Shown here: piece by piece, positions 1 to 5,571 of the stretch
Layout: the number at the start of each line of letters is the position of its first letter
Position numbering within the stretch: the stretch's first letter is position 1
Source of the DNA: Geminicoccaceae bacterium
Lineage (GTDB): Bacteria > Pseudomonadota > Alphaproteobacteria > Geminicoccales > Geminicoccaceae
NCBI GenBank assembly: GCA_030824835.1
Contig: JAPJRA010000292.1
Coordinates: 1 to 5,571 of the forward strand
Reading direction: 5' to 3'
Length of the DNA stretch: 5,571 nt
The notes under the pieces: generated by a model
Databases searched by the model: none
Seen by the model: the letters and a program-made list of their open reading frames with translations, nothing else
What the model was told of the DNA's origin: nothing
Position numbers and translations under genes: made by a program

Positions 1-33
1 GCTGGAAAGCCCGGCCCGTCCGGGCTTTCCAGC
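1..33. repeat. Perfect fold-back inverted repeat at the window edge
   Basis: Arms GCTGGAAAGCCCGG (1-14) and CCGGGCTTTCCAGC (20-33) are exact reverse complements around the 5-base loop CCCGT. The inner arm (20-33) encodes the expected kinase residues L-E-S-P. The outer arm starts exactly at base 1 and gives residues that do not fit the family. It could be a genuine hairpin or a terminator-like coincidence, but a contig-end fold-back artefact explains both the perfect symmetry and the position. Confidence 0.85.
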
Positions 34-3286: not shown

Positions 3287-3470
3287 CCACAGCGGCCCAT
3301 CCCGCGAGGCAAAGCTGGTGCCCGCAACCCCGGCACCGTCGTCTGTTGTGGTGCCCCATGCCCCGGCCTATTAGATCCGGGCCGCCTGCGACAGGTTCGG
3401 GTGGGCCCGCGTCGCACCGCGACTTCGGCCAGCTGCGAGCCCCGCAAATCTGCTCTCGAACACTGGGTTG

Positions 3471-4271
3471 ATGGGTGCCTTGCGGATAACGACCTGGAAC
3501 GCGAACTCGATCCGCCTGCGGGCGGCCTGCCTCGAGCGGATCGTGGCCGAGATCCGCCCGGACGTGCTCTGCCTGCAGGAGATCAAGGTCGAGGACGACC
3601 GCTTTCCCGCCGAGCTTTGCCGCAGTCTCGGCTTCGAGCACCTGCACGTGCACGGCCAGAAGGCCTATCATGGCGTGGCCGTGCTCTCCAAGGTACCGCT
3701 GGATGCGTGCCACAGCCGGCGCTGGTGCGGCATCGAGGACAGCCGGCACGCGATCTGCACCCTGCCGGGCGGCATCGAGCTGCACAATTTCTACATCCCC
3801 GCCGGCGGCGACGTGCCGGATGCCGAGCTGAACCGGAAGTTCAAGCACAAGCTCGACATGCTGGCCGAGCTGACCGACCACTTCGGCGGAAGGCGCGGGG
3901 ACGGCGCCCGGATGGTGCTGGTGGGCGACCTCAACATCGCGCCGCTCGAGACCGACGTCTGGAGCCATCGGCAGCTGCTGAACGTGGTCTCGCACACCCC
4001 CGTCGAGACCGAGGCCCTGCTCGGCCTGCAGGCGGCCTACGGCTTCGTCGACGCGGTGCGGGCGGTGGTGCCGCCGACGCAGAAGCTGTATTCCTGGTGG
4101 TCGTACCGCAACCGGGACTGGGACGCCTCCGACCGCGGCCGGCGGCTCGACCATGTCTGGCTGTCGCCGGAGCTGGCCCCCGCTCTGGTCACCGCCGAGG
4201 TGACCCGCGCCGCACGCGGCTGGGACAACCCCAGCGACCACGTGCCGGTCACGGTCGAGCTGGACGTCTGA
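3471..4271 (+). CDS. xthA: Exodeoxyribonuclease III (AP endonuclease, EEP superfamily)
   Basis: 266-residue cytoplasmic DNA-repair enzyme. The family cuts 5' to abasic sites and degrades 3' ends of duplex DNA using Mg2+. Seen, in order: ITTWNANSIR with Asn12; PDVLCLQEIK with metal ligand Glu37; GQKAYHGVAVLSK (Tyr66, His67); LHNFYIPAGGD; GDLNIAP with Asp153 and Asn155; DVWSHRQLLNVVSHTPVE; SWWSYRNRDW; RRLDHVW with Asp227; and the catalytic SDH motif Asp256-His257 near the C-terminus. All catalytic positions of the E. coli enzyme have counterparts and the length is normal (E. coli 268). The ATG at 3471 is preferred; a TTG sits directly before it at 3468 and another TTG at 3480 would also keep the fold. 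The ribosome binding site is weak (TGGG, 3 nt upstream). Only 3 nt separate it from pdxA, so the two are probably cotranscribed, although repair and vitamin B6 synthesis are not functionally linked. Confidence 0.96.
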   Translation: MGALRITTWNANSIRLRAACLERIVAEIRPDVLCLQEIKVEDDRFPAELCRSLGFEHLHVHGQKAYHGVAVLSKVPLDACHSRRWCGIEDSRHAICTLPGGIELHNFYIPAGGDVPDAELNRKFKHKLDMLAELTDHFGGRRGDGARMVLVGDLNIAPLETDVWSHRQLLNVVSHTPVETEALLGLQAAYGFVDAVRAVVPPTQKLYSWWSYRNRDWDASDRGRRLDHVWLSPELAPALVTAEVTRAARGWDNPSDHVPVTVELDV

Positions 4272-4274
4272 GCC

Positions 4275-5276
4275 ATGAGGGTCGTTCCACCCGTGGCGGT
4301 GACGATGGGCGAGCCCGCGGGCATCGGCGGCGAGATCCTGGTGGCGGCCTGGCGGCAGCTGGCTGCGGCAGGGCCGGTTTTCGTCGCGATCGACGACCCG
4401 GACCGGCTCCGGGCCCTGCCCGGCGAGACGCCGGTCGAGGTCGTGACCGACCCCGGTGATGCCGCCGCCGTGTTCGGCCGGGCGCTGCCGGTGCTGCCGC
4501 TCGGTCACCGGGTCGAGGCTTCGCCCGGGCAACCGGACCCGCGGCACGGAGCCGCCGTCGTCGCCAGCATCGCCCGCGCCGTCGCCCTGACCCGCGCCGG
4601 GGCCACGTCGGCCGTGGTGACCAACCCGATCCACAAGGCGACGCTCTACGCGGCCGGCTTCGGCTTCCCCGGGCACACCGAGTTCCTGGCGGAGCTCGCG
4701 GGCGGGGTGCAGCCGGTGATGATGCTGGCAGGCCCTTCCCTGAAGGTCGTGCCTCTGACCCTCCACGTCGCCCTGAGCGAGGTGCCGCGCCGGCTGGATG
4801 CCGCGCTCATCGTCCGCCAAGGCCTGATCGTGGCCGAGGCGCTGGGGCGCGACTTCGACGTCGCCGGCCCCAGGCTGGCGTTGGCGGGCCTCAACCCGCA
4901 TGCCGGCGAGGACGGTGCCATGGGCGACGAGGAGGCCCGGATCATCGCCCCGGCCGTGGCCGAGCTGCGGGCGCGCGGCATCAACGTCGTGGGGCCGCTC
5001 GCCGCCGCGTGGAACATGGTGTCGGCGGCCCGGGCCAGGTATGACGCAGCCCTGTGCATGTACCACGACCAGGCCCTGATTCCGATCAAGACCCTGGACT
5101 TCGACGAGGCGGTGAACGTGACTCTGGGGCTGCCGTTCGTGCGTACCTCGCCCGACCACGGCACCGCCCTGGACATCGCCGGCCGGGGCCGCGCCCGGGC
5201 CAGCAGCCTGATCGCCGCGATCGAGCTCGCCGACGCCATCGCCGGGCGAAGGCGGGTAGCGCCGGAGCGAGGATGA
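4275..5276 (+). CDS. pdxA: 4-hydroxythreonine-4-phosphate dehydrogenase, carrying an internal microinversion
   Basis: 333-residue cytoplasmic enzyme of DXP-dependent pyridoxal phosphate synthesis. The family oxidises 4-phosphohydroxy-L-threonine with NAD(P)+; the product decarboxylates to 3-amino-1-hydroxyacetone phosphate, the PdxJ substrate. Seen: [11 protein letters not shown] (10-20), TNPIHKATL (116-124), [12 protein letters not shown] (His134-Thr135, substrate binding), and metal ligands His164 (LTLHVAL), His209 (GLNPHAGE) and His264 ([17 protein letters not shown]), each two residues below E. coli His166/211/266. The C-terminus has [26 protein letters not shown]. Odd: residues 245-250 read A-W-N-M-V-S where the family has D-T-M/L-F-H. 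Inverting bases 5001-5029 restores [10 protein letters not shown] exactly. The lost Asp aligns with Asp247 of E. coli, a conserved active-site residue (from memory), so this allele is probably impaired. The frame is intact. Starts 3 nt after xthA with a weak ribosome binding site; its end overlaps pdxJ. Confidence 0.96.
5001..5029. repeat. Inverted-repeat-bounded segment in flipped orientation inside pdxA
   Basis: Arms GCCGCCG (5001-5007) and CGGCGGC (5023-5029) are exact reverse complements around a 15-base core, CGTGGAACATGGTGT (5008-5022). The reverse complement of the core, ACACCATGTTCCACG, placed between the same arms codes for the PdxA consensus A-A-D-T-M-F-H-A-A. In the given orientation that peptide can be read only on the minus strand. 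Breakpoints cannot be placed more finely than somewhere within the 7-bp arms. Confidence 0.88.
5264..5272 (+). promoter_or_regulatory. Ribosome binding site of pdxJ
   Basis: GGAG (5264-5267) followed by GAGG (5269-5272), inside the last pdxA codons. GGAG is 5 nt from the ATG at 5273 and 8 nt from the in-frame ATG at 5276, so either codon could be used; the overlap implies translational coupling to pdxA. Confidence 0.6.
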
Positions 5277-5571
5277 TGAACGAAGCGCCACTGCGGCTTG
5301 GGGTCAATCTCGACCACGTCGCCACCTTGCGCAACGCGCGCGGCGGGGTGCATCCGGACCCGGTGCGGTTCGCGCATCTGGCGCTGGAGGCCGGCGCCGA
5401 CAGTATCACCGTGCATCTGCGCGAGGACCGGCGCCATATCCGCGACGGCGACGTCGAGCGGCTGCTGGCCGAGATCACGGCGCCCTTGAACCTGGAGATG
5501 GCGGTCACGGCCGAGATGGTGGCCCTGGCCCGCCGGCTCTTCACCGGCACCGTGGACGAGCGCGTCGTCGA
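5273..5571 (+). CDS. pdxJ: Pyridoxine 5'-phosphate synthase, N-terminal part, cut by window edge
   Basis: First 99 codons of PdxJ, a cytoplasmic TIM-barrel enzyme that condenses 3-amino-1-hydroxyacetone phosphate (from PdxA) with 1-deoxy-D-xylulose 5-phosphate to make pyridoxine 5'-phosphate. Seen: [19 protein letters not shown] (7-25), [34 protein letters not shown] (45-61; HLREDRRH is diagnostic) and [12 protein letters not shown] (71-82). The start is ATG at 5273, overlapping the pdxA stop as ATGA; the next codon is also ATG (5276) and is equally possible. Odd: after residue 89 the family continues with R/K-P-H-x-x-C-L-V-P-E, but here the bases give [10 protein letters not shown], and neither other forward frame recovers the motif. 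The last ~32 bases may therefore not belong to pdxJ, or the contig end is chimeric. About 240 residues would be expected in full. Confidence 0.95.

What the first reader, a model, noticed from the sequence alone, without database searches (positions are those of the whole stretch)
5001..5029. Frame-preserving microinversion in pdxA that removes the conserved A-D-T-x-F-H motif
Seen directly: 7-bp perfect inverted repeats flank a 15-bp core; as given the codons read [10 protein letters not shown], but after reverse-complementing 5001-5029 in place they read [10 protein letters not shown]. Known: PdxA proteins carry G-P-L-x-A-D-T-x-F about 18 residues before M-Y-H-D-Q, exactly this spacing. Chance recovery of the full motif by inverting a segment bounded by inverted repeats is very unlikely. 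The flipped form loses the conserved Asp (E. coli Asp247 position), so PdxA activity is probably lost or reduced. Explanations: a template switch at a transient hairpin in the cell, a reversible flip in a mixed population, or fold-back during amplification or assembly. The segment is far shorter than known recombinase-driven invertible switches, so template switching or artefact is favoured.
Basis: partly seen in the sequence, partly recalled or inferred. Interest (0 to 1): 0.85.

Follow-up and report, generated by a model that had tools for sequence, protein, structure and literature searches.

The report
Tiny hairpin-flanked inversion in pdxA
In this bacterial DNA, fifteen letters inside a vitamin B6 gene lie back to front between two short mirror-image repeats, which would likely disable the enzyme; the flip was probably made by a DNA-copying slip, more likely in the sequencing tube than in the living cell.

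Summary
Window 5001-5029 in pdxA has 7-bp perfect inverted-repeat arms around a 15-bp core. Inverting it turns [10 protein letters not shown] into [10 protein letters not shown], letter-identical to the closest relative found (P0001, 95% identity). Of 108,900 in-silico flips in pdxA, this one gains 45-51 bits against homologue profiles; the best elsewhere gains 7.3. The lost Asp (E. coli position 247) is present in 234 of 234 homologues. None of 102 other pdxA genes shows a comparable flip.

This is a microinversion of the inverted-repeat-flanked kind known from primates, yeast and plastids, best explained by a double template switch. Whether a cell or the laboratory made it cannot be decided without reads. 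I lean to the laboratory: the gene is otherwise intact; the window's left end is a 14-bp hairpin (arms of 10 bp or more at 0 of 32 control contig ends) where a kinase gene leaves its family consensus; the right end leaves the PdxJ consensus; and library chemistry is reported to invert spacers between inverted repeats (PMC10908179). No recombinase gene was recognised in the window. Loss of PdxA activity is inferred, not tested.

The parts
4275..5276 (+). pdxA, 4-hydroxythreonine-4-phosphate dehydrogenase, 333 aa, open frame kept
   Evidence: NCBIfam NF003699 449.8 bits over cut-off 378 and TIGR00557 375.1 over 290.35; Pfam PF04166
5001..5007 (+). left inverted-repeat arm GCCGCCG
   Evidence: pair I7
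5008..5022 (-). 15-bp inverted core; its reverse complement encodes the D-T-M-F-H motif of the family
5023..5029 (+). right inverted-repeat arm CGGCGGC
   Evidence: pair I7
4992..5031 (+). second overlapping inverted repeat (arms 4992-4998 and 5025-5031, 26 nt between), an alternative pairing for the hairpin
   Evidence: pair I6
1..33 (.). terminal hairpin: 14-bp perfect arms 1-14 and 20-33, 5-nt loop; read (inferred) as a fold-back chimera at the contig end
5537..5571 (+). right-end tail (start approximate) where pdxJ stops matching its family
   Evidence: 40 of 40 homologue places carry the usual continuation; PF03740 match ends at residue 88
5276..5571 (+). pdxJ start (pyridoxine 5'-phosphate synthase), overlapping the pdxA stop; runs off the window
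3468..4271 (+). xth-like exodeoxyribonuclease III, control gene, no flip signal

Best explanation
The 15-bp core at 5008-5022 of pdxA is inverted between two 7-bp inverted-repeat arms, and it was likely flipped by a DNA polymerase that switched template twice at this hairpin, more probably during amplification or library preparation than in the cell. Shown: the inversion relative to all homologues examined, its boundaries at the repeat, and a gene otherwise in open frame and close to P0001. Shown in the same window: a 14-bp hairpin at the left end and a departure from the PdxJ consensus at the right end; that these are chimeric molecules is inferred. Inferred: a 3' end that had copied the first arm paired with the complementary arm on another strand, copied the spacer backwards, and returned to the original template at the second arm. 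Inferred: at low coverage the chimeric molecule became the consensus. If such an allele existed in a cell it would be predicted to encode an inactive PdxA.
For: Flip optimum exactly at the repeat, +45 to +51 bits against at most +7.3 elsewhere. The window's best flip gains 52.75 bits; 102 other pdxA genes (the distinct ones among 112 loci) reach at most 17.6, median 8.3. Six contiguous substitutions lie in the core against 9 scattered over 327 residues relative to P0001, so no other decay is seen. The motif is invariant: Asp 234/234, Phe 234/234; Asp in 102/102 loci genes, 98 by regular expression and 4 read by eye. Terminal 14-bp hairpin; the kinase reads SPDGPG-FP there, whereas the 21 parsed homologue places have Ser (18) or Thr (3) next (12 of 33 places not parsed). 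Terminal arms of 10 bp or more: 0 of 32 other contig ends; in internal 80-mers, arms of 10 bp or more 3 of 3,000 and of 12 bp or more 0 of 3,000. Right-end divergence of pdxJ in comparison with 40 of 40 places. Sonication libraries yield chimeric reads with inverted spacers between inverted repeats (PMC10908179 abstract and one section).
Against: The published artefact model, as I read that section, gives one junction per chimeric read; this consensus has two clean junctions, so two switches, or chimeric reads from both sides, are needed. Such artefact calls are reported as low-frequency, and coverage here is unknown. The core's repeat lies 542 nt from the nearer window end. The same signature is found as real mutations in genomes (PMC8755829, PMC8604942). 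Chimeric contig ends do not prove an internal chimera, and I assume, without knowing, that the window ends are contig ends.
Confidence: 0.55

Rival explanations
1. The same double template switch happened in the cell during replication or break repair, and the contig records a real, recent pdxA loss allele in a bacterium that would probably need vitamin B6 from neighbours.
For: Shape matches natural microinversions: 59 human-chimpanzee events of 17-33 nt, all flanked by inverted repeats, 28 of them with 4-7 nt arms (PMC8755829); ten coding spacer inversions in yeast (PMC8604942). Both junctions are exact and the gene is otherwise clean.
Against: The motif is invariant in the homologues examined, pdxJ next door matches its family over its first 88 residues, and none of the relatives examined carries the flip, so a fixed allele must be very recent. 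The yeast spacer inversions had arms longer than 9 bp and 2-5 bp changes. The window ends look chimeric.
Confidence: 0.33
2. A reversible switch: the segment flips back and forth in the population and turns PdxA on and off.
For: Perfect arms are kept in both orientations, so a second template switch would restore the gene (sequence itself). In yeast, the spacer of one gene, SPO75, changed form more than once, with a reversal (PMC8604942 passages).
Against: No recombinase gene recognised among the window's genes; 29 bp in total is too short for a looped synapse, as PMC8755829 argues for segments under 33 bp. Relatives examined show one orientation only.
Confidence: 0.05
3. The inverted peptide A-W-N-M-V-S is a natural, working variant of PdxA, or arose by clustered point mutations.
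For: The frame stays open and the protein still scores above the PdxA family cut-off. The open frame is weak evidence: 920 of 953 tested 15-nt flips in pdxA keep it open.
Against: Its reverse complement gives the relatives' motif, at repeat boundaries; Asp and Phe invariant in 234 of 234; among the 120 listed of 7,062 hits to this region none is above P0001's 87% identity.
Confidence: 0.02

Closest known systems
Inverted-repeat-flanked microinversions between human and chimpanzee (PMC8755829; abstract, one section, part of the Discussion seen)
   Same: Short exact inversion, inverted-repeat arms at the boundaries, arm length in their 4-7 nt class
   Different: Bacterial coding gene; minimal core 15 nt against their 17-33 nt; one sequence only, no reads; origin in a cell not shown
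Spacer inversions by template switching in yeast genes (PMC8604942; abstract and passages seen)
   Same: Inversion of the spacer between inverted-repeat arms inside coding DNA, frame kept
   Different: Yeast cases had arms longer than 9 bp, 2-5 bp changed and at most two replacements from the inversion; here arms are 7 bp, spacer 15 bp, six replacements in an invariant motif
Library-preparation chimeras at inverted repeats, PDSM model (PMC10908179; abstract and one section seen)
   Same: Spacer between inverted repeats appears reverse-complemented
   Different: Reported as low-frequency soft-clipped reads in human DNA; here two junctions in an assembled consensus
Quasipalindrome template-switch mutations in E. 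coli (PMC7202029; passages seen)
   Same: Polymerase template switch at an inverted repeat in bacteria
   Different: Reporter events there correct imperfect arms through an intramolecular switch; no word beginning with inversion occurs in that paper's main text
Small inversions in chloroplast hairpin loops (Kim and Lee 2005, seen only as cited in passages of PMC12928735)
   Same: 5-50 bp inversions between short inverted repeats forming stem-loops
   Different: Cited arms 11-24 bp; plastid genomes
Intragenic invertons of bacteria (Chanin et al. 2024, seen only as cited in passages of PMC11868660 and PMC11892184)
   Same: DNA inversion inside a bacterial gene
   Different: Recombinase-driven by my recall; here very short, no recombinase gene recognised, only one orientation known

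Membership tests
Inverted-repeat-flanked microinversion | Segment is the reverse complement of the ancestral state | tested here: met
   protein-level identity with P0001 after inversion; DNA of close relatives was not available, so exactness at every base is not shown
Inverted-repeat-flanked microinversion | Inverted repeats at the boundaries | tested here: met
   flush arms of 7 bp or more at only 2 of 5,450 15-nt cores, this one included
Inverted-repeat-flanked microinversion | Length 17-33 nt as in PMC8755829 | tested here: inconclusive
   15 nt minimal core, up to 29 nt with arms
Inverted-repeat-flanked microinversion | Present in cellular DNA | not testable with these tools
   No reads; no whole genome held
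Library chimera at inverted repeats | Reverse-complemented spacer between inverted repeats | tested here: met
   PMC10908179 section
Library chimera at inverted repeats | Minority, soft-clipped reads | not testable with these tools
   No reads available
Library chimera at inverted repeats | Another fold-back-like hairpin in the same contig | tested here: met
   Terminal hairpin 1-33; its reading as a chimera is inferred
Recombinase-driven inverton | Recombinase nearby and a segment long enough to loop | tested here: not met
   No recombinase domain in the six proteins scanned with Pfam; 29 bp in total; the rest of the genome could not be searched
Recombinase-driven inverton | Both orientations in one population | not testable with these tools
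   No reads
PdxA enzyme family | Family profile score above cut-off | tested here: met
PdxA enzyme family | Invariant Asp and Phe of the A-D-T-x-F motif | tested here: not met
   Ala245 and Met248 in the window

The most novel reading that the evidence does not exclude
A recombinase-free hairpin switch: in-cell template switching at a 7-bp inverted repeat flips the conserved motif of PdxA in and out of register, so that a free-living alphaproteobacterium toggles between making vitamin B6 and depending on its neighbours. It would be far smaller than the recombinase-driven gene switches known to me.
Probability: 0.05. Interest if true: 0.85.

Novelty: new member of a known kind. Interest (0 to 1): 0.36.

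Why it matters
If cellular, it would be a clean case of a six-residue jump in a conserved bacterial enzyme by one template-switch event, and would suggest that such microinversions can pass unnoticed in databases as odd substitutions. If an artefact, it shows that assembled metagenome genes can carry hairpin-made, frame-preserving false mutations that a frame check would rarely catch: 920 of 953 tested 15-nt flips in this gene keep the frame open. The flip scan used here could look for both kinds in bulk.

Tried and rejected
Recombinase-driven inversion: no recombinase gene recognised in the window, segment too short. Natural functional variant: motif invariant in 234 of 234 homologues. Unusually stable hairpin as cause: z-scores near 0 (0.03, -0.30, 0.45). 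Second copies of the inverted form: a search weighted on residues 226-270 listed 120 of 7,062 hits with none above P0001's 87%. That database shows only representatives of 90% clusters, so a variant inside P0001's six-member cluster would stay hidden. Other microinversions in the window: none in xth. The flip scan was not run on the kinase, SCO1, NMT1-like or pdxJ genes; homologues of all four were fetched. DNA of close relatives: one genome-contig scan gave at most 63% identity in the 80 loci kept, and whole-genome searches at most 65% in the rows listed. Fold-back origin of the right-end tail: its longest match elsewhere in the window is 11 nt, so its source is unknown. Paper searches that found nothing: intragenic inversion with three other terms (0 papers), PdxA with Asp247 (0 papers). 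Structure prediction was not run, since it would not show activity.

Full report
What is there. The window carries, from left to right, a sensor histidine kinase (minus strand, running off the left end), a SCO1/SenC protein and an NMT1-like binding protein (both minus strand), an xth-like exonuclease III, pdxA and the start of pdxJ. No whole genome is held for it, so it is probably a metagenome contig. Named hits point to Geminicoccaceae or near kin: PdxA at 75% and exonuclease III at 82% identity to proteins labelled Geminicoccaceae bacterium (P0006, P0256).

The observation. The inverted repeat and the 15-nt core are exactly as described. Reverse-complementing 5001-5029 turns residues 245-250 into D-T-M-F-H-A and changes nothing else. 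The closest relative found, P0001, has precisely that sequence; it differs from the window at 15 residues, six of them these contiguous ones. In 234 PdxA homologues the first and fourth of these positions are Asp and Phe without exception. In the alignment of P0001 with the E. coli chain 1ps7, residue 245 corresponds to Asp247. I recall, from no call, that the annotated metal ligands of E. coli PdxA are His166, His211 and His266; a search for PdxA with Asp247 found no paper.

Chance. Scoring flips of 4-120 nt in pdxA (108,900 flips) against homologue profiles gives one outstanding optimum, the minimal core 5008-5022, with the symmetric extensions through the arms scoring the same: +45.2 bits, +50.7 with the larger profile. 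The best flip outside this site gains 7.3 bits, and in xth 4.3 bits among 85,418 flips. Applied to 102 other pdxA genes (flips of 8-60 nt), the best gain is 17.6 bits with a median of 8.3, against 52.75 for the window. Inverted repeats of this size are common, with 22 pairs in pdxA, and the hairpin is not unusually stable. But only 2 of 5,450 15-nt cores, this one included, have flush arms of 7 bp or more. The inversion is therefore real as a statement about this sequence.

Signs of chimeric molecules in the same window. Bases 1-33 form a perfect 14-bp hairpin with a 5-nt loop. On the kinase strand the reading is ...WLESPDGPG followed by FP, where the repeat turns back. In the 21 parsed homologue places (of 33) the next residue is Ser (18) or Thr (3). 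The Pfam HATPase match ends at residue 498 of 501. Among 32 definite contig ends in fetched loci, none has a terminal arm of 10 bp or more (the longest are 7 and 6); of 3,000 internal 80-mers, 3 have one of 10 bp or more and none of 12 bp or more. At the right end pdxJ matches its family to about residue 87, then reads [10 protein letters not shown], where 40 of 40 homologue places continue into a VPE...TTE stretch. That tail does not look like a fold-back (longest match elsewhere in the window 11 nt) and its source is unknown. Both ends thus look chimeric, one of them by hairpin. This assumes that the window ends are contig ends.

Mechanism. A flip flush with short inverted repeats and no other change is the expected signature of two template switches. 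PMC8755829 (abstract, one section and part of the Discussion read) reports 59 such events of 17-33 nt between human and chimpanzee, all repeat-flanked, 28 of them with 4-7 nt arms. It argues that recombinases cannot loop so short a segment, and offers break-induced replication as an alternative for very short or imperfect arms. [quoted passage not shown] PMC10908179 (abstract and one section) describes library preparation yielding reads with reverse-complemented spacers between inverted repeats. PMC7202029 (passages) concerns template switching at quasipalindromes in E. coli.

In the cell or in the tube. For the cell: two clean junctions, an interior position, and agreement with natural events. 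For the tube: an invariant motif destroyed in an otherwise undamaged gene directly upstream of pdxJ, none of the relatives examined with the flip, and chimeric-looking window ends including a hairpin. A deleterious natural allele should be rare in its population, while an artefact molecule needs only low coverage; this is reasoning, not a measurement. I therefore put 0.55 on an in-vitro double switch, 0.33 on an in-cell one, and 0.05 on a reversible switch. Read counts would settle it.

Novelty. Among the searches made, judged by the titles and abstract openings listed (some lists were capped, for example 12 of 83 papers), none showed a bacterial enzyme gene altered by a spacer inversion of this size. 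That is a limited search of open papers and no proof of absence. The kind of event is known; this is a further member, of uncertain reality in the cell.

Noticed in passing
window 1-33: Perfect 14-bp hairpin with 5-nt loop at the very start of the window; the histidine kinase leaves its family consensus there, so the contig end is probably a fold-back chimera.
   Followed up: yes
window about 5537-5571: The last roughly 35 nt of the window do not match PdxJ although about 87 residues before them do; probably a chimeric contig tail of unknown source.
   Followed up: partly
window 3468-5571: xth, pdxA and pdxJ lie in a tight row, with the pdxA stop overlapping a pdxJ start. PdxA and exonuclease III hits share several contig lengths (36685, 34709, 3862), which suggests the xth-pdxA neighbourhood recurs in relatives.
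   Followed up: no
L049 pdxA: A Mesorhizobium complete genome has 11-bp perfect inverted-repeat arms around the same D-T-M-F-H motif in the normal orientation, so the site can carry a longer hairpin without being flipped.
   Followed up: no
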